Shown piece by piece: positions 16,923 through 58,099 of a stretch of 64,000 nucleotides of DNA. The DNA comes from Fimbriimonas ginsengisoli Gsoil 348 (lineage in GTDB: Bacteria; Armatimonadota; Fimbriimonadia; Fimbriimonadales; Fimbriimonadaceae), in the NCBI RefSeq assembly GCF_000724625.1, contig NZ_CP007139.1, positions 4,340,001 through 4,404,000 on the forward strand, read 5' to 3'. The notes under the pieces were generated by a model that saw only the letters and a list, made by a program, of their open reading frames with translations, had not been told where the DNA came from and did not search any database. The stretch's first letter is position 1, and the number at the start of each line of letters is the position of its first letter. The translations under genes and the position numbers were made by a program.

Positions 16923-17333
16923 TTACGGAAGAAACAAGGCCCTCTCGGCGGGAGTGGGCAGGCGGCAAGAATCTTTCTTGCCGAACCAGCGATAGCGGTT
17001 CTTCGCTACCAAGCGGTAGCCCCAGTCGCGAAGCGGGCGCGGGATCACCATGCCCAGGGCGCCGAGGAAGCCGTAGAATCCGCCGAGGTGGCGCAAGACC
17101 CCCAGGGCGGCGGACGAGCGGACGTGCTTGCCTCGGTCGTCGACGAGCACCACGGTCGACAGTCCCTCTTCGTTTGCGTATTCGGCGACAATCTGTTTTG
17201 CCGTGTCGCCCTGCAGCGACGAATATCGGAAGCGCCGTGCCTTATCGTGACGGATAACCCAATCGACGGAGGCGTTGCACAGGTTGCAGACCCCGTCGAA
17301 GAACAAGGTTGGATGATCTAATGCGGGGATCAT
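16923..17333 (-). CDS. DCC-family thiol-disulfide oxidoreductase-like protein (DUF393)
   Basis: This 136-residue protein has the hallmark of the family near its N-terminus, FFDGVCNLCNASVDWVIRHD, containing a CxxC pair. It is followed by FRYSSLQGD and a C-terminal RPLRDWGYRLVAKNRYRWFG. Family members are described as predicted thiol-disulfide oxidoreductases. The chosen ATG at 17333 overlaps the ispH stop as ATGA, indicating translational coupling; the longer frame to 17642 runs antisense-like through ispH and is not credible. Confidence 0.88.
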   Translation of the reverse strand: MIPALDHPTLFFDGVCNLCNASVDWVIRHDKARRFRYSSLQGDTAKQIVAEYANEEGLSTVVLVDDRGKHVRSSAALGVLRHLGGFYGFLGALGMVIPRPLRDWGYRLVAKNRYRWFGKKDSCRLPTPAERALFLP

Positions 17334-18274
17334 CGGGACATCGCGAGCTGAATCAGATCTCTCGAGGGCTTGAATGTCACATCCTCCTTGATCGTTTCCA
17401 ACACGGTTACCGGCACATCCGGCCGACCTTTGAGAAGTTCGCCGATCACCTCTTCTACGAGCTGTTCCGGGGTGGAAGCGCCGGAAGAGATGCCGATCGT
17501 GCGAAAGTCCGTCTTCCATTCCGGCCGAATTTGATCCGGGCGGAGAAGGAGGTGTGCCTCGGGTCCGATCCCCTCGGCTACCTCGCGAAGGCGATTCGAA
17601 TTCGAGGAGCTTGGGGAACCGACGACCAGAACGAGATCGCACTGCGCGGCCAACTCACGAATCGCCATTTGACGATTCGTCGTCGCGTAGCAAATATCCT
17701 CTTTCTGCGGACGCTCCAGGTGAGGGAACCGGCGCTGCAACACGTCCATCGTGGCCGAGACTTCGTCCACGCTAAGGGTGGTCTGCGTGAGCACCGAAAG
17801 CTTCTCGTGAGGCGGCAACACGAGCCTTTCGGCATCCTCGGGAGTCTCGACGAGGGTCATCCTTCCGGGCGCCTCGCCCATCGTCCCCTCGGCTTCTACA
17901 TGGCCAAGGTGGCCGATGTAAACCATGTAATACCCCTTGGCGGAGTAGTGCTTGGCTTCGTTGTGAACCTTGGTGACGAGAGGGCAGGTGGCGTCGATGA
18001 TCGTCAGGCCGCGTTCCTTGGAATGAGCGCGCACATCGGGCGAAACGCCGTGGGCGGAGAAGACGACGACGGAGCCGCGCGGAACGTCGTCGATATCTTC
18101 GACGAACACCACCCCGCGTTGCTCGAACGAGCGCACGACCCACTCGTTGTGGACGATCGCATGCCGCACGTAGATGGGAGCGCCGTGAATCCGCAGGGCA
18201 AGGTCGACGACCTCGATGGCGTACGCTACGCCGGCACAAAAGCCCCGCGGGGCGGCGAGGATGATTCGCTCCAC
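17330..18274 (-). CDS. ispH: 4-hydroxy-3-methylbut-2-enyl diphosphate reductase
   Basis: This is the last enzyme of the methylerythritol phosphate pathway, an iron-sulphur reductase producing IPP and DMAPP. Expected features are all present: APRGFCAGVAYAI with the first cluster Cys at 13, SAHGVSPDV, DATCPLVTKVHNEA with the second Cys, the catalytic TQTTLSVDE, DICYATTNRQ with the third Cys, and VVGSPSSSNSNRL for substrate binding. The 314 residues match the family. It implies the organism makes isoprenoids through the MEP route. Confidence 0.96.
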   Translation of the reverse strand: MERIILAAPRGFCAGVAYAIEVVDLALRIHGAPIYVRHAIVHNEWVVRSFEQRGVVFVEDIDDVPRGSVVVFSAHGVSPDVRAHSKERGLTIIDATCPLVTKVHNEAKHYSAKGYYMVYIGHLGHVEAEGTMGEAPGRMTLVETPEDAERLVLPPHEKLSVLTQTTLSVDEVSATMDVLQRRFPHLERPQKEDICYATTNRQMAIRELAAQCDLVLVVGSPSSSNSNRLREVAEGIGPEAHLLLRPDQIRPEWKTDFRTIGISSGASTPEQLVEEVIGELLKGRPDVPVTVLETIKEDVTFKPSRDLIQLAMSR

Positions 18275-18380
18275 GTCCGATTCTACTCCGCGGGATGGCC
18301 GTGCGTTTTCTTGATTGCGGTAGAGGCGTTTGCGGGCGGGACGCCCGCGCTTCGGTGGCGCATCCGTCTATATTCGTTCT

Positions 18381-20015
18381 ATGGACGCGCGGATGGTGAA
18401 TCGGATGCTGGAGCAGCGGGTGCGAGACCTTGCGGCAAAGAGCCCCTCGGGATCGCTCGAGGAGCGGCGGCGGACTTTGCGCAAGTCGCTCGGACTGGAA
18501 CCGATGCCGCCGCGGACGGAGCTAAACGCGCAGGTAACCGGCATCCTCATGCGCGACGGTTACCGCATCGATAAGCTTCGATATGAATCTCGTCCCAGGG
18601 TGCTCGTCACCGCGCATCTGTACCGGCCGGAAGGTGAAGGGAAGTGGCCGGTCATCCTGCGTCCCCACGGGCACTGGGACCACAAGAAGAGTGCGCGAAT
18701 CGTTCAGGCCGGCGCTATCGGACTTGCGCTCGCAGGCTTTGCAACCCTCGCCATCGACTCTCCCGGCGTGAGCTGGGACGATAACCCGCAGAACGAGCGG
18801 CGAGAGATGGGGCCGCACGACGACTGGTTCCTCTCTATGGGAATGCCGGTCCTAGGCGTTTATGTGTGGGATGTTCTTCGAGGGCTCGACTACCTGGAGA
18901 CTCGTACGGAGCTCGACACTACCAAGGTCGGGATCACGGGCGCCAGCGGCGGCGGGGCCACGGCGATGTATGCCTTTGCCCTGGACGATCGGATCGCCGC
19001 CGCCGTCCCGGTCGTCTCGGTGGCGAGCTTGGAGATGAACCCAAACCTTGGATGTCTGTGCAACCATCTTCCAGACCTGATGGCGAACGGCGATCGCTCC
19101 GACGTGCTCGGGATGCGAGCCCCGAACGGTGCGGTAATGGTGCTAGCGGCCGAGGTCGATGAGGAGTTTCCGATCGAAGGACATCTCCGAACCGAGGAGA
19201 AGCTCAAGCGGATCTACCGCCACCACCGGTGCGAGCACAAAGTCCGCTTCGAGCGGTTCTGGGGCGGGCACGATTACAACCGTCGGATGCGGGAGGCCGC
19301 CTTGGCATTCTTTACCGAGCACCTCCGAGGCGCGAAACCGGCCCCGTATCTCCCCGAGTCGCGCCCCCTGTTCGACGGAATCCTGAACCCATATCCCACC
19401 GGCACGGAGGACCCCACGAACCCCGCGCTTCTGGTTACCGAGTCTCACGAACGCTCCACCAGGAGCTTCCGGGAGCTGCTCGGCACTGCGTTGGCCGAGC
19501 CGTATCCGGAGCCATTGAACAGCGAGCCGCGGGTTATGTCGTGGCGTCGCTACGGAAATCTGCTCGACGTCAGGCCGGGAGCCATCGTGGCGATCCACGA
19601 CTCGACGGTCGAGAACCCAAAGGAAGCCGGATCGATCGTCCTTCCGATCGAGGAGGTCGACCAGCGCCTCTGCATCATGCTCGGCCTGAGCATGGCCGAG
19701 CTATTCGGCCAGCTCCTTCACACCTTCCTCCCCGGTGGTCCGGAGGGTTGGGAAGTCGCCGGCGCAGGCATCGCCGGGGACGCGCTGACGTCGATGATCG
19801 CGTCCGTTCGAACGCTTGTTTCCACTCCCGAAGCACCGCCGAAGCTGATCGTCGCCGAGGGCCCAGTCGCCAGCCTTGCCGCCCGCTTCCTCGCCCGCTA
19901 CCGTCCCGATCTCGACGTTCAGGCAACCCACCTCTGGACCTCATGGCGCGAAGCTCTCGACCAAAACATCCGCCAAAACGCCCAGCCGAACGCTCGCTAT
20001 CTGGACTGGGTGTAG
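18381..20015 (+). CDS. large alpha/beta hydrolase, acetyl-xylan-esterase/dipeptidyl-peptidase-like
   Basis: This 544-residue hydrolase is counted from the ATG at 18381; an in-frame extension to 18330 is not supported by a ribosome site. The core shows VILRPHGHWDHKK, the nucleophile motif GASGGGATAMYAF, and a probable His in FWGGHDYNRRM. A second, smaller domain follows residue 350, with no motif I recognise. No signal peptide is visible. The last 20 codons recur at 25942-26003 with only synonymous changes, flanking the Rhs island that begins just after this gene. The function is assigned only to fold level. Confidence 0.8.
   Translation: MDARMVNRMLEQRVRDLAAKSPSGSLEERRRTLRKSLGLEPMPPRTELNAQVTGILMRDGYRIDKLRYESRPRVLVTAHLYRPEGEGKWPVILRPHGHWDHKKSARIVQAGAIGLALAGFATLAIDSPGVSWDDNPQNERREMGPHDDWFLSMGMPVLGVYVWDVLRGLDYLETRTELDTTKVGITGASGGGATAMYAFALDDRIAAAVPVVSVASLEMNPNLGCLCNHLPDLMANGDRSDVLGMRAPNGAVMVLAAEVDEEFPIEGHLRTEEKLKRIYRHHRCEHKVRFERFWGGHDYNRRMREAALAFFTEHLRGAKPAPYLPESRPLFDGILNPYPTGTEDPTNPALLVTESHERSTRSFRELLGTALAEPYPEPLNSEPRVMSWRRYGNLLDVRPGAIVAIHDSTVENPKEAGSIVLPIEEVDQRLCIMLGLSMAELFGQLLHTFLPGGPEGWEVAGAGIAGDALTSMIASVRTLVSTPEAPPKLIVAEGPVASLAARFLARYRPDLDVQATHLWTSWREALDQNIRQNAQPNARYLDWV
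19953..20011 (+). repeat. duplicated 3' end of esterase gene, copy A (island left flank)
   Basis: These 59 bases match 25942-26000 at 55 positions. Copy A forms the C-terminus (ALDQNIRQNAQPNARYLDWV) of the intact esterase gene. Both copies end in a stop codon in the same place. Confidence 0.85.
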
Positions 20016-20029
20016 CAACCTTGATAGAC

Positions 20030-20706
20030 TGGGCGACTATGTCACGGACGTTGAATCGGTTGAGGTTTTCTTCTCGCCACTCGTGCAAGTGAAACTGCAT
20101 GCCATCCCGGTCTCCGTCCTTGGCGAACCGTTCGATGATTGAGGCATGCTCTAGCCGCTCAAGTTCGAAGTCTTGAACTTCTCTGGCAGGGTATTTGGCA
20201 TGCCAACCCTCAAAATATTTCCGCATATTTTGAACCTCTCTTAGCGTTTCATCAAACCTATTTAGCCGTGCATACGTGGCAGCCTTGTCAAGAAAGTAGA
20301 TCGAATCCCGGTGCGGTAGTGGGTAGTGGTCAAGAAAATCAATAAACCGTTCTGGACTGCGGAAACGGTCCAACATTGGTAAGCCGATGTCACGCATGAT
20401 CCTCTCGGGATCGAGATCCGGCTCTACCAGAGAATCTTGCACGTAGACTGGGAACGCATCGATTCCCCAAAGTGGGGTTCTTCGGAATTCGCCGACCATA
20501 CGAAAGCCTCACGAACGCATTCGGTATGTGCAGAGGAAAGCCGAATGGCTGCAGCCACCGGCAACGTTGATCCATTGAAGTGTGATCAAAACTGAATCCG
20601 AAAAGGAATTCTTTCACTGGCGCGTGGATGAGGCATGTACCCCTCCTGGCGAAGGAGGAGAAAGTGTCCGATAGAAGGGAAGCAGCCTTCGGTTCGGGTG
20701 CCTAGA
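20030..20706 (-). pseudogene. decayed tandem copy of the putative Rhs immunity gene
   Basis: Across several frames this region encodes a paralogue of the neighbouring 231-residue protein. HPNRRLLPFYR, GTCLIHAPVKEFLFGF, DQRCRWLQPFG and SYGRRIPKNP align with its N-terminal half in two frames. After a further frameshift near 20490, AFPVYVQDSLVEPDLDPERIMRDIGLPMLDRF through NRFNVRDI aligns with the C-terminal half. No continuous frame covers it. Its 3' end runs without a stop into the antisense of the esterase gene, so it is truncated at the island edge. It starts within about 10 bases of the intact copy's stop, a tandem duplication. Confidence 0.8.
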
Positions 20707-20714
20707 TGCCATTG

Positions 20715-21410
20715 TTAAGGGTCCGCGACGTCGCGGAGGTTGTACCGATCCAAGTTTTCTTCACGCCACCGAAGCAACTGAGTCTGCATGGCCTCGCGGT
20801 CTCCGGCCCGGGCGAGGTCTTCGATGACCAAGGCATGCTTGAGCCGTTCAAGTTCGAAATCGTGAAGTTTCTCTCCATCATGCCTTGCAAGCCAATCGTC
20901 TTGGCCCTCGCGGAGATTTCCGATTTCCTCCAGAGCCGCATCAAAATTCCCGAGGCGGGCGTGCGTAGCCGCCTTGTCGAGAAAGTAAATCGACCCCCGA
21001 TTGGGGAGCGGATAGTGATCAAGGAATTCTAAGAACACTTCCGGGTTGCGAAAACGGTCGAGCATCGGCAGACCAATGTCTCGCATGATCCGCTCTGCAT
21101 CAAGATCAGGCTCTATGTGTGAGTCGCGAATATAAACGGGAAATGCGTCGAGCCCTCCATTCGGATTCTTTGGAATCCTTCTCCCATATGAAAGGCTCTC
21201 AAAACACTTCGGAACGTACACTGGGCTGCCAAAGGGCTGGAGCCATCGGCAGCGTTTGTCCATTGCTGTCGGATAAAAATTGAAGCCGAAAATAAACTCT
21301 CCGATGGGAGTATGTATAAGATTCGTTCCACACCCGACATAAGAGTCGAACTCCCGTCCCAAGCTTCTGAAGAACGGGAGTAGCTCTCGATTGGGTCTCG
21401 GTCGCCGCAT
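20715..21410 (-). CDS. putative immunity protein for the Rhs toxin
   Basis: This 231-residue soluble protein has no signal peptide and no family I can name. Its N-terminal part contains LLPFFRSLGREFDSYVG and FIFGFNFYPTAMDKRCRW. The C-terminal part is helical and Glu/Arg/Leu-rich, with KAATHARLGNFDAALEEIGNL resembling one TPR-like helix pair. It starts 21 bases after the stop of the Rhs toxin gene on the same strand and is followed by a broken copy of itself. That position and the tandem copies are typical of polymorphic-toxin immunity genes. The assignment is contextual. Confidence 0.6.
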   Translation of the reverse strand: MRRPRPNRELLPFFRSLGREFDSYVGCGTNLIHTPIGEFIFGFNFYPTAMDKRCRWLQPFGSPVYVPKCFESLSYGRRIPKNPNGGLDAFPVYIRDSHIEPDLDAERIMRDIGLPMLDRFRNPEVFLEFLDHYPLPNRGSIYFLDKAATHARLGNFDAALEEIGNLREGQDDWLARHDGEKLHDFELERLKHALVIEDLARAGDREAMQTQLLRWREENLDRYNLRDVADP

Positions 21411-21431
21411 TTTCGAAATTTACTCCTACCC

Positions 21432-24400
21432 CTAGCGAGGGATCATGAGGCCACTGGTTCCTGGTACCTTGAAGACCGGTGGATTGCCGTATTCTACTGG
21501 AAGCTCTGCCTTGATAGCTCTTATTCTGCTTTCTGGAAGGCGGGCAGCGCCGAACTTGTGGTCGAAGATTGCCAGGACATTATCGAAGTAGCTAAGGACA
21601 ACGTCGCAACGTACGGAACCCTTCTGACCATAATACTTAGCTGGCTCCTTTCCTATAAATGACTGTTCGACCTTCACCGTAACACTTCCAAAATCTGTCG
21701 CCCTGAGCGTATTTGCAACTGAGGTGTGGGCCATCGTTCCGCCAGCGGGACCGCTCTCGGCATCCTTGCCGGTTTGTTCGACGAGAGCGAAAATAAGGGC
21801 GACCGCGCGCTGAACTGCCACGGGTTGCCGTATATACCACGCGTAGCACTGCCAGCCCATCCGCTGGGCCAAAGTTTCGGTGCCCGCTGTGGCGGCTTCT
21901 TCGGCCGCCGCTTCCGAAGCTTCCGCCGCTAACTCGACCGCGCAGTCATCGAGGTCGCCCGCCATTCCGAACCCCGACGGGTCGATGTATCGAAGCGGAT
22001 TGTTGCTTACGTAGGCGTACCAGTTCTTGCCGTCGCCCACCGGGTCGCGGGTGATGAAGCGGCCGGTGCCGGAATCGTAGTATCGATTCCCGAGCAACTT
22101 CAAACCGATCTCGGAGTCGTCCTGGTAGCCCGGCCCGCCCGCGTAGGTTAGCGGACCCGGTGCAACCCCCGTTTGGGAAAGTAAATTCCCGAACGCGTCG
22201 TAGCCGGCGTCAAAAGTCTTGGCCTGTGAGCCGTTCACCGCCAGCGAGTAAGTTCCTTGGCGGTCGCCCAAGTAGTACTGGCCCGATGAGTCGCCCACGC
22301 CGGGCGTGTAGAACTTCACTCCGTCCGAGAGAAGCGAAGAGAGGGGAGAGACTCCGTTCCGCTTGTAGGTTCGAGTGCCAACCGAGGTGCTGCTCTTGCC
22401 AACCCGAGCATTTGCCCCGTTATAGGTGAAGTTGGTCGAGTACGTGCTGCAGTAGGTTAGGCGATCGTCGTAGTCATAAGAAAGATTTGTGGTGGTGGAC
22501 GGCGTCGAAACCTGAGTAGTTCGCCCCGCGAGGTCGTAGGAGAACGTTTTGCTCGAACCAGGCCACGTAATGGAAAGAAGCTTGTCCGCGCCATCGTAGG
22601 TATAGCTCTCGACGACACCGTTCACGGTGCGCGTCAAGCGGTTGTCATTCCCGTCGTAAGTGTACGAGGCCGAGTAGCCTGTTTTGTTCTCGGATGTCAG
22701 GCGGTCGAGACTGTCATAGCCGTAGGTCGTTTGAACGCCGCCTGCGATCTTCGAGCTGAGATTAGATGCTGCGTCGTAGAAATAAGCCTCAGTACGGATA
22801 ACGGTATTGTCGGCTTTCCGGTGCTCGATTTGACTTGATCTACCACGAGTGTCATAGGCAAAGGTCGAGTAGGTTCCGTTACTATGTGTTCGGCGAGAGA
22901 TTCGCCCCGCAGAATCGTAGAGAAGCGTAGTTGTCTTGCCTTGAGCATTAACGAACGAGCCAAGCTGCTGCTGAGTGTTGTACGAGTAAGTAGTGGTTCC
23001 CACCCCCGCTTCCTGCATCGTCACGCGTCTGCCAAGGGAATCGTACGTGTAGTTGATCGTTCCTTGTGGGCTAACGAACTGTGTGACCTCGCCACGGTAG
23101 TTGTAGACCCATGAGTGCGAACCAGTCGCATCGGTCATGCTCTTGACGGGTGGGTGGGGGGTGTTGTAACTACCGTATCCGAAAGTGGTATCGACTCCGG
23201 TCGGGTAGTCGACTTTCGTCAGACGGCCCATTGAGTCATAGGTGTACTTGATCTGATCACCCAAAGGGTTAGTTCGTTGGGAATAGGCTCCGCTTGCGTT
23301 GTAAGCAGCGTATTCGCAAGAGTTATCCGCGAGAAGGGAACTGTAGAACTCACCACGGGGCGTGTATCTGAAAGTTCTTGTAAAGTTCCGACCGTTCGTA
23401 ATCGACGTCAACAAGCCGTCCGCGTTGTAGCCTAAGCTCTCCGTTACGTTCGCTGCGTTCGTCTGACTTGTGCGCCACATGGCGTCGTTGTAGTTAAAGT
23501 TAGTGGTGTGGTTCTTCTCATCGGTGATGGACTTGACATTGCTTTCGGAGTCGTAGGAGACCGTGACGGTCGTGTTATCCGGGTTCGTCAAGGTAATGGG
23601 TCTGTTCCAGTTATCGTACGCGATGGAGGTGGTCTCACCGGCGGCGTTTGTGCAGGAAGTGACGTTTCCAAGTACATCGGAGGAGCTAGTCTCAACATAA
23701 CCATCGTGGTTTGCCGTCAAGATGTTGCCGTTGCTGTCGAAGGTGAAATTATCGTTGTGTCCCCCCGATCCGTGCTGATAAGTTTGGCCGTAAGAACCAA
23801 TGGATTCTGTCCATACGACTTCAGCGCTGGTGTCAATCGTGTCCTTTGACGGTTTCCCGTTTTGGTAGGCGATCGTGTGAGATTGATTCAGCTCGTCCGT
23901 ATAGTAAATTATGTCGTTCGTTGAGTTATAGCCGAAGTCCTTGATTCCATCCGTGGGCGTAATCGTCCTTGTAAGATTTCCATTAACTCCGTATTGGAAC
24001 TGCCAATTGTTCCCGCGCTTGTCGCGGTAGTACGTTACATTTCGAGAGGCGTCGACGGTCGACTGATCGCTATACCCGGCTGGATCCGTTTCACCAACGT
24101 AAACGCCCTGCTCGTAGTGGTGCGTATAAGTCTCCCCACCCGGAAGGGCAAAGGAAGTTGAAGAGCCGTTGTAAGTGTAATTAGTTTGGTTCGCAAGTGG
24201 ATCTTGGAATAATGTCAGTCGACCTGCGGCGTCGTAGTCACATGGCCAAACTTTGCCTCGTAAGTCGGTTTCGGTAAGAATCGGTGCGTTCGGATTATTG
24301 GTGTCCCACCGGTAAGTGAACCGTCGGGCATAACTGACTCCGTCGACGGGCGGGTAAGTGAGTGCCGTCAATGTGTTCTGAGAATAGTTCCGCGTAAGCG

Positions 24401-25517
24401 TCCACGTTCGGTATTGAGGATCGACGATAGAGCTATAGCTTGTGCTGTTACCTTGGTTGAACGTAATGGTTCTGCCGGTCGGATCAACGACAGACGTTAT
24501 CATCATCGTATTTGGGTCGTGATTGACCGTAATAGTGTTGCCGTTACGATCCTTGATATCGATCAAGTAGCCTCGGTTGTTGAAGTCGTAGACGATCTGA
24601 TCTTTTCTGGTGATTTTCCAACCAGTAGTAGAGCGATAGAGGGTCTCATAAACGCCCGGAGGCGCCGTATAAACTCCTGGAGATCGGGACCAACTGGTGT
24701 ACTTATAAGAGGTTCCGTTCTCCCAAGTCACAATGGCCGTCTTTAGTACTGGCGTCGAAGGTGGGTCTGTTGTGTACGAAGCCATGCTATCTTCGAAGAC
24801 TGTAATGTCGAAACTGCTTCGCCAGCTCTTCGGCCATCCAAGAGCGCTAGCGCGTCCAATCGAATTGTGATAGAGGTTGAACTCCATCGAAAGCTTGGCG
24901 CCCCGCACGGGCCAATTCACGATTGGAATCGTAGTAAGCCGGTTACCGGTATTGGTATTCACCATGCCACTATCGTGAGCGCCGCCCCCAGGGCCCCAGT
25001 GCTCCCATCGTGTGCCTCCACCGCCTGGATCCCCGGCCGCACCAGTGGATGTTCCGGTTGTGCCTCCTGAAGTTCCTGTTGTACCTGCGGAGGTGCCTGT
25101 CGTCGACGAACTCGTTCCGGTAGTGCTACCAGTAGTGGTTCCTGTCGACCCGGTCGTACCGGAGGTTGTCCCATCACCGCCGAGTCCTCCGCCATTGGGA
25201 TTTAGCGTTGCCGCAACTGGTGCGGCTTCCGGTAATAACTGGCCATTCTCTTGCAGAGTTTGAACCTTTCCTAGCTCGGTGACAGAACTCGCATCCCAAA
25301 CGCCGCCTCGCCCTGCCTCATCACGAGAGGCATCTGGAGGCTCGTTAAAAGGGACGATATCGTCCGTGTACATCCCCGGCTCACCTTGCGCAACCCGGGC
25401 GCCGTAGCGGAGGACGGAATTTATAGATCCCGGAGCTGACCCGTACAAGACACAGAGGGCGAGCCCGATACAAACACGACGAAACCAGGGCCGAGTCGGC
25501 ATTTTGCAAACTGACAT
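21432..25517 (-). CDS. Rhs/YD-repeat polymorphic toxin with PD-(D/E)XK-like C-terminal domain
   Basis: This is a 1361-residue exported Rhs protein. Order: signal peptide (VCIGLALCVLYGSAPG); a Gly/Ser/Thr low-complexity tract at about 108-168; a DUF6531-like opening (GGAHDSGMVNTNTGNRL); some 800 residues of YD repeats (YDSLGRRVTM, YDSAGRISR, YTYDGNDNRL); then the Rhs core boundary RFITRDPVGDGKNWYAYVSNNPL ending DPSGFG at about 1184. The 177-residue tail is the variable toxin: Asp1305 in VRCDVVL, then IFDHKFGA with Asp1319 and Lys1321, and RLPESRIRAIK. This pattern matches restriction-endonuclease-like (Tox-REase) effectors. Sampled lines are 43-48 % GC, below the neighbours, suggesting transfer. 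No type VI secretion genes are present. Confidence 0.88.
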   Translation of the reverse strand: MSVCKMPTRPWFRRVCIGLALCVLYGSAPGSINSVLRYGARVAQGEPGMYTDDIVPFNEPPDASRDEAGRGGVWDASSVTELGKVQTLQENGQLLPEAAPVAATLNPNGGGLGGDGTTSGTTGSTGTTTGSTTGTSSSTTGTSAGTTGTSGGTTGTSTGAAGDPGGGGTRWEHWGPGGGAHDSGMVNTNTGNRLTTIPIVNWPVRGAKLSMEFNLYHNSIGRASALGWPKSWRSSFDITVFEDSMASYTTDPPSTPVLKTAIVTWENGTSYKYTSWSRSPGVYTAPPGVYETLYRSTTGWKITRKDQIVYDFNNRGYLIDIKDRNGNTITVNHDPNTMMITSVVDPTGRTITFNQGNSTSYSSIVDPQYRTWTLTRNYSQNTLTALTYPPVDGVSYARRFTYRWDTNNPNAPILTETDLRGKVWPCDYDAAGRLTLFQDPLANQTNYTYNGSSTSFALPGGETYTHHYEQGVYVGETDPAGYSDQSTVDASRNVTYYRDKRGNNWQFQYGVNGNLTRTITPTDGIKDFGYNSTNDIIYYTDELNQSHTIAYQNGKPSKDTIDTSAEVVWTESIGSYGQTYQHGSGGHNDNFTFDSNGNILTANHDGYVETSSSDVLGNVTSCTNAAGETTSIAYDNWNRPITLTNPDNTTVTVSYDSESNVKSITDEKNHTTNFNYNDAMWRTSQTNAANVTESLGYNADGLLTSITNGRNFTRTFRYTPRGEFYSSLLADNSCEYAAYNASGAYSQRTNPLGDQIKYTYDSMGRLTKVDYPTGVDTTFGYGSYNTPHPPVKSMTDATGSHSWVYNYRGEVTQFVSPQGTINYTYDSLGRRVTMQEAGVGTTTYSYNTQQQLGSFVNAQGKTTTLLYDSAGRISRRTHSNGTYSTFAYDTRGRSSQIEHRKADNTVIRTEAYFYDAASNLSSKIAGGVQTTYGYDSLDRLTSENKTGYSASYTYDGNDNRLTRTVNGVVESYTYDGADKLLSITWPGSSKTFSYDLAGRTTQVSTPSTTTNLSYDYDDRLTYCSTYSTNFTYNGANARVGKSSTSVGTRTYKRNGVSPLSSLLSDGVKFYTPGVGDSSGQYYLGDRQGTYSLAVNGSQAKTFDAGYDAFGNLLSQTGVAPGPLTYAGGPGYQDDSEIGLKLLGNRYYDSGTGRFITRDPVGDGKNWYAYVSNNPLRYIDPSGFGMAGDLDDCAVELAAEASEAAAEEAATAGTETLAQRMGWQCYAWYIRQPVAVQRAVALIFALVEQTGKDAESGPAGGTMAHTSVANTLRATDFGSVTVKVEQSFIGKEPAKYYGQKGSVRCDVVLSYFDNVLAIFDHKFGAARLPESRIRAIKAELPVEYGNPPVFKVPGTSGLMIPR

Positions 25518-26031
25518 ATTGCACCAATCGCGCCGATTCTAACCGAACGGTCATCAATTTGTTCGTACCTTTAAGTGAGAATTACTATCTTCGGTCGCGG
25601 CTTATGATGCAGAACCTTAGGAATGAGATACCTGTAGAACCGCGGCCTTGGCCGATTGGGGGCGAACGAATCACGGTGCCAAACACCAGGGTCGAAGGTG
25701 TGGACCAAAATGTGCCTAAGCTGGTTGAGTTCCCTCACCAGTCGTCGGTGGCTCCACTTCGGTTGCGTCCTCAGCTCAGCGATAGCTGGTCATGCATCGA
25801 ATGAATTGTCGTTCCGTCGACGGTTCTAACTTTTCGGCAAAGTGATTGCCCGGTAGCACGGAGCTATGAGCCGCCATTTCCCGGTGCCTCTAGAAAGCAC
25901 CCGAAACGCTTCCCATCCCTTGATGGCTATTGTAAGAGCGCGCTCTCGACCAAAACATCCGGCAGAACGCCCAGCCAAACGCTCGCTATCTGGATTGGGT
26001 TTGAACCAGAATCTTAACGAACACTCGTTCA
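25518..26031. other. upstream region of the Rhs gene and right end of the island
   Basis: No convincing gene is present. The short frames here have no protein-like pattern. The region must hold the Rhs promoter and, at 25942-26003, the duplicated end of the esterase gene that marks the island boundary. Confidence 0.5.
25942..26003 (+). repeat. duplicated 3' end of esterase gene, copy B (island right flank)
   Basis: This orphan fragment reads ALDQNIRQNAQPNARYLDWV and a TGA stop, the same 20 residues as the end of the esterase gene at 19953-20015. The differences (CGC/CGG, CAA/CAG, CCG/CCA, GAC/GAT, GTG/GTT) are all synonymous. Homology stops abruptly upstream at the GCT codon. Confidence 0.85.
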
Positions 26032-26916
26032 ATGACGATCGTCTTTGGTTGGATGTTGCAGATGCCTCTGGGTCGGATTGCCTTTCTCACTCTAGTTGCC
26101 GGCCTTGGTGCTTTACTCGCCGGTGGTTGTGGCGGTGGGAGCACGGGACGCTCGTCTGTGTATCCGTTGTCCGTTGCCCGCCTTAAGACGCTCAATCGAG
26201 GGCTGTTCATGTATATGGGGGATTGGGACGAGCGGCTGCCGTTGGCTGACTCCTGGATGGAGGGGCTGACTCCTTATGTCCACGATCCGGAGGCGTTCCA
26301 CTCGCCCGCGCTCGAGGACTCGCACTTTGGATACGCGTTGAATTCGGCAGTCGCCGGTCACACCTTTACCGAGTTTTCAAGCCCGGCATCGGTCGTCACG
26401 TTCTTCGACTCCAGGGTGTTAAGGGCAGACGCGACGGCTTCGCTGGACACAATGCCCACGCCGCCGCGGTACATCACGCGGAATACGATCGCCTATCTGG
26501 ATGGCCACGTTCAGGACGAGATCACCGATCAAACTCCCCCGGCCGACCTGTATCAGGAGTCGCGCACACGCCTCAAACGCGTTGCGCTCGGGATGGCGAT
26601 GTACGGTAGCGATTACGACGACCGGCTTCCTTTCGCCGGCAAGTGGATGGACCAACTCTCGCCTTACGTAACGACTGCCAACAGTTTCCGCTCGCCGGCG
26701 GTGGAGCTTGCGAATCCAGCGAATTACGGCTTTGCCCTAAACCAGGGGATCGCTTCGCACAGCTTCGCCGAGTTCGACAATCCGGCGACGATGATTTCGA
26801 TCTTCGATTCGACGCTCCTGAACAGAAACGCAACTGGTCCGACGACCACGGTGCCGAGTCCGCCCAGATACGGCTTGAACAATACGATCGCGTATCTCGA
26901 CGGGCATGTCCCGTAG
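26032..26916 (+). CDS. exported protein with two tandem pseudopilin-like DGH domains
   Basis: This 294-residue product has a hydrophobic export signal ending LLAGGCGGG, probably a lipoprotein. Two homologous halves follow: LKTLNRGLFMYMGDWDERLPLADSWMEGL through NTIAYLDGHV (about 46-162), and LKRVALGMAMYGSDYDDRLPFAGKWMDQL through NTIAYLDGHV (about 182-293). Each resembles the globular domain of DUF1559-type pseudopilins with the final DGH motif, but the pilin N-terminal helix is gone. In-frame ATGs at 26053 and 26062 could be the real start. The function is unknown; a surface or periplasmic role is inferred. Confidence 0.75.
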   Translation: MTIVFGWMLQMPLGRIAFLTLVAGLGALLAGGCGGGSTGRSSVYPLSVARLKTLNRGLFMYMGDWDERLPLADSWMEGLTPYVHDPEAFHSPALEDSHFGYALNSAVAGHTFTEFSSPASVVTFFDSRVLRADATASLDTMPTPPRYITRNTIAYLDGHVQDEITDQTPPADLYQESRTRLKRVALGMAMYGSDYDDRLPFAGKWMDQLSPYVTTANSFRSPAVELANPANYGFALNQGIASHSFAEFDNPATMISIFDSTLLNRNATGPTTTVPSPPRYGLNNTIAYLDGHVP

Positions 26917-26919
26917 ACG

Positions 26920-26944
26920 GTTCTGCGACCCGCTCCGGGGTCGG
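26920..26944 (+). repeat. TTCTGCGACC-type short hairpin repeat, copy 2
   Basis: GTTCTGCGACCC is followed by CCGGGGTCGG, which can fold back on itself. It is followed by further short hairpins (TTCCCCGGGTAGG / AAACCCGGGG) up to the end of metH. Confidence 0.55.
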
Positions 26945-27061
26945 TTCAGACCGGCACCTCTTCCCCGGGTAGGAAACCCGGGGCTAATTTCTGGCACCCT
27001 TCCAGGGTGGATGCGCGGAAGGGAGAATGCTGGCAGGGGGCCATGTCAGCCTATGCAGGAA

Positions 27062-40796: not shown

Positions 40797-41100
40797 CGCC
40801 TGGCATGGGCTTCCAGCCCATGCGTTTCACGACCATCCTGGCCGTGTAACCGTAGCAACGGCTCCCAGCCGATGATCCCAGGGTGATCCTGGTCGCCTAG
40901 ATCGGCCCTGTCCTGGATGGTCATCAACAAAATAGATTGACAAAGTAGGTTCACCCGTAGCCCGGGGATTTATCCCCGGTTGAACCTTGAACCGCGGCTA
41001 AAGCCACGGGCTACGGGTGAAATCAGATTAGGGAAATGTAAACCAATTTGGCCATGCCCTGGAAGGATATGGGACCCACTGGCAAGATGCCAGTGCCACG
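40797..41100. other. 304-base repeat-rich gap
   Basis: The gap opens with the hairpin ATGGGCTTCCAGCCCAT (40805-40821), continues with unremarkable sequence, and holds the 116-base repeat with the nested hairpin core. It ends with the words CCAGTGCCACG that close the phosphoesterase gene. No gene is present. Confidence 0.6.
40935..41050 (+). repeat. cloverleaf-like repeat, copy 1
   Basis: The core 40950-41021 has terminal arms TTCACCCGTAGCCC / GGGCTACGGGTGAA (perfect, 14 base pairs). These enclose two inner hairpins, CCGGGGATTTATCCCCGG and CCGCGGCTAAAGCCACGG. The flanks GATTGACAAAGTAGG and GGGAAATGTAA are shared with copy 2 at 57955-58070. Confidence 0.85.
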
Positions 41101-57795: not shown

Positions 57796-57954
57796 TCTCT
57801 GTGTTTGTCTCCTCTCAGGGCTCGCCAGGCAAAAACTGGTTGGATTTAGGCTTCCAGCCGGCAGTCCGAGCAACTTCGTAGCGAAGCGAGAGACTCTATT
57901 TAGGTCTATATTTCGCTTGCCCGTAGCCCGGGGACTATGGTTTTTAACCAAATG

Positions 57955-58070
57955 GATTGACAAAGTAGGTTCACGCGTAGCCCGGGGACTTATCCCCGGT
58001 AGAACCCTGAACCGCGGCTAAAGCCACGGGCTACGGGTGAAATTGGACGAGGGAAATGTAAGCCTAATTT
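57955..58070 (+). repeat. cloverleaf-like repeat, copy 2
   Basis: The core 57970-58041 is nearly identical to 40950-41021, differing by a few bases, with one changed base in the terminal stem (TTCACGCGTAGCCC). The inner hairpins and flanks are conserved. Confidence 0.85.
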
Positions 58071-58099
58071 GCCAATGACCATGAAGCCCATGCCACGTT

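What the first reader, a model, noticed from the sequence alone, without database searches (positions are those of the whole stretch)
19953..26003. Rhs island flanked by two versions of the end of an esterase gene that differ only synonymously
The last 20 codons of the esterase gene recur 5.9 kb away, with 5 codon changes, all silent, and the same stop position. Homology begins sharply at the Ala codon. This fits an element that carries a matching 3' end and restores the target gene on insertion, displacing the native end, although no integrase is present. All differences being synonymous argues that both ends once functioned in a gene.
Basis: partly seen in the sequence, partly recalled or inferred. 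Interest (0 to 1): 0.75.

Follow-up and report, generated by a model that had tools for sequence, protein, structure and literature searches.

The report
Toxin island beside leftover gene end
A foreign toxin-and-immunity cluster in a soil bacterium sits between an intact enzyme gene and the last 63 letters of a second, once-working version of that gene, most likely a scar of DNA taken up from a relative rather than a new kind of self-inserting element.

Summary
Esterase codons 541-560 plus stop (window 19953-20015) recur at 25942-26004 with 7 differences in 63 nt, all silent, even the stop (TAG/TGA). Chance of that is about 4e-5, so both ends belonged to working genes. No homology extends beyond the repeat, and no other copy exists in the genome (Fimbriimonas ginsengisoli-sized contig, 5,231,762 bp).

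Between the copies lies a low-GC (51-55%) Rhs toxin/immunity locus. Its immunity family occurs in no other of 291 phylum genomes. The locus is not a clean element: its outer immunity gene is a frameshifted pseudogene lacking its own stop. No tyrosine integrase lies within about 540 kb.

I favour capture of donor DNA (donor esterase 3' end plus Rhs locus) by one-sided homologous recombination, leaving the native gene's tail as a stump. A close rival is that copy B is the remnant of a decayed second esterase gene. In 1.23 Mb sampled, three other genes have nearby partial copies (four in all) that keep 3'-terminal sequence; those scored have dS far above dN, so silent divergence is not special to this island. 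The "element that restores its target" reading is possible but unsupported. No relative close enough to decide is held; the nearest esterases are 54-60% identical.

The parts
17330..18274 (-). ispH (lytB), conserved divergent neighbour of the esterase
   Evidence: Pfam LYTB E 9e-91; the ispH-esterase pair is kept in G004, G005, G025
18330..20015 (+). Esterase / alpha-beta hydrolase gene, intact, stop TAG
   Evidence: Pfam AXE1 and GCE_fung above cut-off; alignment with five orthologues
19953..20015 (+). Copy A: functional 3' end of the esterase (codons 541-560 plus stop)
20016..20674 (-). Immunity-like pseudogene (imm1): front end missing, frameshifted, own stop lost at the junction with the esterase
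   Evidence: matches P0004 residues 80-229 and 17-91 in two frames at 61% and 57%; ORF reads on into antisense esterase
20715..21410 (-). Immunity-like gene (imm2), 231 aa, no known family
   Evidence: no significant Pfam/NCBIfam hit; found in no other of 291 phylum genomes
21432..25517 (-). Rhs/YD-repeat protein, 1361 aa, with Rhs_assc_core and a private C-terminal tip
   Evidence: RHS_repeat E 6e-39, TIGR03696 E 3.5e-17
25518..25941 (.). Non-coding low-GC stretch between the Rhs start and copy B; single copy in the genome; no integrase remnant found in its ORFs
25942..26004 (+). Copy B: stump of a second version of the esterase 3' end, stop TGA, not part of any current gene (in-frame TAA four codons upstream)
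   Evidence: sequence
26032..26916 (+). Lipoprotein-like gene after copy B (no family); first gene beyond the island

Best explanation
Copy B is the stump of a second, formerly working version of the esterase, and the island is imported DNA. The most likely course is homology-anchored capture. A fragment from a related lineage carried that lineage's esterase 3' end followed by its Rhs toxin/immunity locus. It recombined by homology inside the resident esterase and was joined without homology, at its far end, to the resident gene 60 coding bases before its stop. A single crossover with a circularised fragment would give the same product. The upstream gene then has a donor 3' end (copy A) and works, and the resident tail (copy B) is left behind the island. 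Shown: silent-only divergence, sharp borders, low-GC island unique to this genome, no nearby integrase. Inferred: donor origin of A, order of events, the recombination route.
For: All 7 differences are silent, P about 4e-5, as between orthologues of two lineages (dS 0.49, dN 0). Homology breaks off abruptly at a codon inside the gene and no other esterase relic lies in the island, as a one-sided non-homologous join predicts. The island is compositionally foreign and its immunity family is absent from 290 other phylum genomes. No integrase within about 540 kb. A and B share a derived C-terminus (WV*) where orthologues have WPF, so the two versions split after this lineage left its relatives. 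Literature: this type of recombination has been proposed for stacking effector-immunity modules and for Rhs loci (PMC5361080), and single crossovers that duplicate part of the anchor gene were recovered experimentally in E. coli (PMC3240628).
Against: No donor or empty-site genome is available, so chimerism of the esterase is unproven. The process is rare in the laboratory (PMC3240628). In the sampled 1.23 Mb three other genes have nearby partial copies, with dS well above dN where scored, and two of these relics look like decayed fuller copies, so decay of a second gene needs no special recombination. No clear microhomology at 25941/25942.
Confidence: 0.45

Rival explanations
1. Copy B is the remnant of a complete second esterase gene (tandem paralogue or imported extra copy) that was maintained under selection and then lost about 96% of its length by deletion; the Rhs locus lies between by separate insertion.
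For: The same genome has other genes with nearby partial copies: a VOC gene (81 shared codons, dS 1.05, dN 0.04), an S51-peptidase-like gene (two partial copies: dS 0.32, dN 0.03; and 18 codons with 10 silent and 1 non-silent change) and a 746-aa gene (41 C-terminal residues at 71%, plus 57 nt of upstream sequence). All keep 3'-terminal sequence; the S51 small relic and the 746-aa gene relic also keep sequence from the front side.
Against: The esterase relic keeps no front end. It needs three events (duplication, insertion, deletion) and long selection on two near-identical proteins. No tandem esterase is seen in G004, G005, G016 or G025.
Confidence: 0.35
2. Site-specific integrative element that targets the esterase 3' end, carries a matching end and restores the gene (as e14/phage 21 at icd), now without its integrase.
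For: The first 20 nt are identical, as an att core would be, and differences lie only 3' of it (P 0.09). The prophage of F. ginsengisoli Gsoil 348 is reported to have a 20-nt core inside a gene whose end it replaces (PMC4072686).
Against: No integrase in the island or within about 540 kb; the left border truncates a pseudogene; no sibling element at the genome's other Rhs loci or in the sampled 1.23 Mb.
Confidence: 0.12
3. Recent partial duplication of the gene end with neutral drift of the spare copy.
For: A short direct repeat is all that is seen.
Against: Neutral change would almost surely have hit non-silent sites: P 4e-5 for 7 changes, 0.004 if only four fell on the spare copy.
Confidence: 0.03

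Closest known systems
Homology-facilitated illegitimate recombination (Acinetobacter, S. pneumoniae, P. stutzeri, E. coli; PMC3240628)
   Same: Foreign DNA next to a homologous anchor gene, one sharp non-homologous border, no recombinase; single-crossover variants duplicate part of the anchor gene.
   Different: Here the anchor is inferred, not observed; no clear microhomology; donor unknown.
Stacked effector-immunity modules with orphan immunity genes (V. cholerae T6SS, Rhs loci; PMC5361080)
   Same: Rhs protein with private tip, adjacent immunity-like gene, and a decayed orphan immunity gene behind it.
   Different: The insertion border lies in an unrelated enzyme gene rather than in the Rhs/T6SS locus; no T6SS was looked for here.
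Phage e14 / 21 in E. coli icd (from memory), and the prophage of F. ginsengisoli Gsoil 348 (PMC4072686)
   Same: Island bordered by two versions of a gene's 3' end, with the upstream gene kept whole.
   Different: Those carry a recombinase; this island has none and its left edge is a broken gene.
Partial duplicate genes in the same genome (VOC, S51-like, 746-aa gene)
   Same: Partial nearby copy with the 3' end kept and, where scored, dS well above dN.
   Different: Relics with both ends preserved show internal deletion; the esterase stump has only its tail.

Membership tests
Rhs toxin/immunity locus | YD/RHS repeats plus Rhs-associated core followed by a variable C-terminal tip | tested here: met
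   RHS_repeat, YD_repeat_2x, Rhs_assc_core over cut-off; tip (178 aa) has no family
Rhs toxin/immunity locus | Toxic tip neutralised by the downstream immunity protein | not testable with these tools
   No family hit; activity not assayable in silico
Site-specific integrative element in a gene 3' end | Integrase encoded in the element | tested here: not met
   No integrase family in island proteins; PF00589 only at 2.41, 2.67, 4.91 Mb. Serine recombinases not searched genome-wide.
Site-specific integrative element in a gene 3' end | Identical core with element-borne gene end restoring the reading frame | tested here: inconclusive
   20-nt identical run then 7 silent differences, but an equally clean start has P 0.09
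Homology-facilitated illegitimate recombination product | Homologous anchor on one side, foreign insert, non-homologous join on the other | tested here: inconclusive
   Gene on left, foreign island, sharp join at right; crossover point not visible without the donor
Homology-facilitated illegitimate recombination product | Deletion of recipient DNA and 3-10 bp microhomology at the join | tested here: inconclusive
   Empty site unknown; no clear microhomology at 25941/25942
Decayed second gene copy | Further remnants of the second gene near the stump | tested here: not met
   No other esterase match at 20016-27061, DNA or protein level
Decayed second gene copy | Tandem gene present in relatives | tested here: inconclusive
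   Not seen in four relatives, but they are only 53-60% identical

The most novel reading that the evidence does not exclude
The Rhs island is a unit mobilised in trans that targets this gene end and carries a matched, synonymously recoded 3' end, so that toxin/immunity modules could spread without their own recombinase.
Probability: 0.06. Interest if true: 0.6.

Novelty: new member of a known kind. Interest (0 to 1): 0.3.

Why it matters
It is a readable scar of how a toxin/immunity locus entered a chromosome in a little-studied phylum (Armatimonadota), and it shows that silent-only differences between a gene and a nearby relic are a useful sign that both copies once worked. It also warns that such a signature alone does not prove a target-restoring element, since partial gene copies elsewhere in the same genome show mostly silent divergence too.

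Tried and rejected
Searched for a closer relative: 61 related genomes, all 20 genus genomes held, genome contigs by protein and by back-translated tail, viral contigs by tail and by imm2, plasmids by imm2: nothing. Looked for gene-end duplicates at the other Rhs loci: none. Looked for integrase remnants in the 424 nt before copy B: none. Asked where the ancestral downstream genes folB-nusA went: they lie at 3.73 Mb, so the esterase neighbourhood is rearranged and gives no empty site. I first took the VOC pair as a second case of the same island architecture; the stretch before residue 58 of its relic suggested, by eye in another reading frame, the gene's N-terminus with an internal deletion (and notebook entry), but a DNA-level search found only the 276-nt 3' match, so that point is weak and the notebook wording overstates it. 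One phrogs search failed on a bad coordinate and was not repeated.

Full report
Observation. The repeat is exactly as described. Copy A is the last 20 codons and stop of an intact 561-codon esterase-like gene; copy B stands alone 5.99 kb downstream, with an in-frame stop four codons upstream. All seven differences in 63 nt are silent, including a two-base change between stop codons. Random changes would be all silent about 4 times in 100,000. There is no similarity outside the repeat and no third copy in the genome. The contig length (5,231,762 bp) equals that published for Fimbriimonas ginsengisoli Gsoil 348 (PMC4072686).

What lies between. On the minus strand: a 1361-aa Rhs protein with core and private tip, a 231-aa immunity-like gene, and a frameshifted, front-truncated relative of that gene whose own stop is missing where it meets the esterase. 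GC is 51-55% in the island against 59-64% for the esterase and the genes beyond copy B. The immunity-like family was found only in this genome among 291 of the phylum. So the island is most likely a horizontally acquired toxin/immunity locus with an orphan immunity pseudogene; toxicity and immunity are inferred from the architecture, not shown.

Relatives. The ispH-esterase pair is conserved in three relatives. In G004 and G005 the esterase is followed by convergent folB, then nusA and infB (gene names by inspection of the translations); in this genome folB and nusA are at 3.73 Mb. Identity of orthologues is 54-60% within the genus, too low to say which copy is resident. All orthologues end in WPF, some with a short extension, where A and B both end in WV, so A and B share a recent ancestor.

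Base rate. In 1.23 Mb of the same chromosome, fetched in stretches, I searched for nearby partial copies of genes. Besides the Rhs tips and intergenic repeats there are partial copies of a VOC gene, an S51-like peptidase gene (two) and a 746-aa gene. The VOC and S51 copies differ from the parent mostly silently (VOC dS 1.05, dN 0.04; S51 0.32, 0.03; small S51 relic 10 silent and 1 non-silent change); the 746-aa pair was not scored for dS/dN. All keep 3'-terminal sequence. The S51 small relic and the 746-aa gene relic also keep a piece from the front side, so they look like decayed fuller copies. None is known to flank a mobile island, although a 732-aa gene lies between the VOC pair. Hence mostly silent divergence marks formerly working second copies in general.

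Mechanism. Neutral drift of a spare end is very unlikely. Three readings remain. (1) Import of a donor esterase end plus Rhs locus by homology on one side and a non-homologous join on the other, leaving the resident tail; this needs one event and explains the sharp border, the absence of other esterase remnants and the absence of an integrase. (2) Decay of a full second gene, with precedents in this genome but needing three events and leaving no front remnant here. (3) An integrative element that swaps the gene end, for which the 20-nt identical start is the only positive hint (P 0.09); no tyrosine integrase is within about 540 kb. I rank them 0.45, 0.35, 0.12.

Literature. One-sided recombination of this type is described in PMC3240628, including partial duplications of the anchor gene by single crossover, and has been proposed for effector-immunity stacking and Rhs loci in PMC5361080. 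The e14-icd comparison is from memory.

Limits. Serine recombinases and transposases were not searched genome-wide.

Noticed in passing
L102:4460-8175 (G000 4728460-4732175): VOC/glyoxalase-like gene with a nearby 3' partial copy (81 codons, dS 1.05, dN 0.04) and a 732-aa gene between them.
   Followed up: partly
L100:10896-11570, L101:6336-6401, L102:3265-3765: S51-peptidase-like gene with two partial copies 15 and 32 kb away; the smaller keeps only a few bases of the front and the last 18-22 codons.
   Followed up: partly
L069:1715-4907: 746-aa gene followed 0.6 kb on by a miniature relic made of 57 nt of its upstream region and about 41 of its last codons.
   Followed up: partly
L045:7149-11124: Array of three orphan Rhs core-plus-tip fragments, 74-84% alike over 300 nt, spaced 1.8-1.9 kb.
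   Followed up: no
L084:16732-17310 and L111:13182-14138: Two unrelated genes (pyrE-like and a B12-binding regulator-like gene) share their last 40 nt; a short palindromic repeat appears to supply both C-termini (VASAPSR*).
   Followed up: no
window 40917-41054 and 57937-58074: 138-nt interspersed repeat (88%), partly self-complementary, in two copies 17 kb apart.
   Followed up: no
window 25935-25946: Perfect 12-nt palindrome AGAGCGCGCTCT spans the border where copy B begins; probably chance.
   Followed up: no
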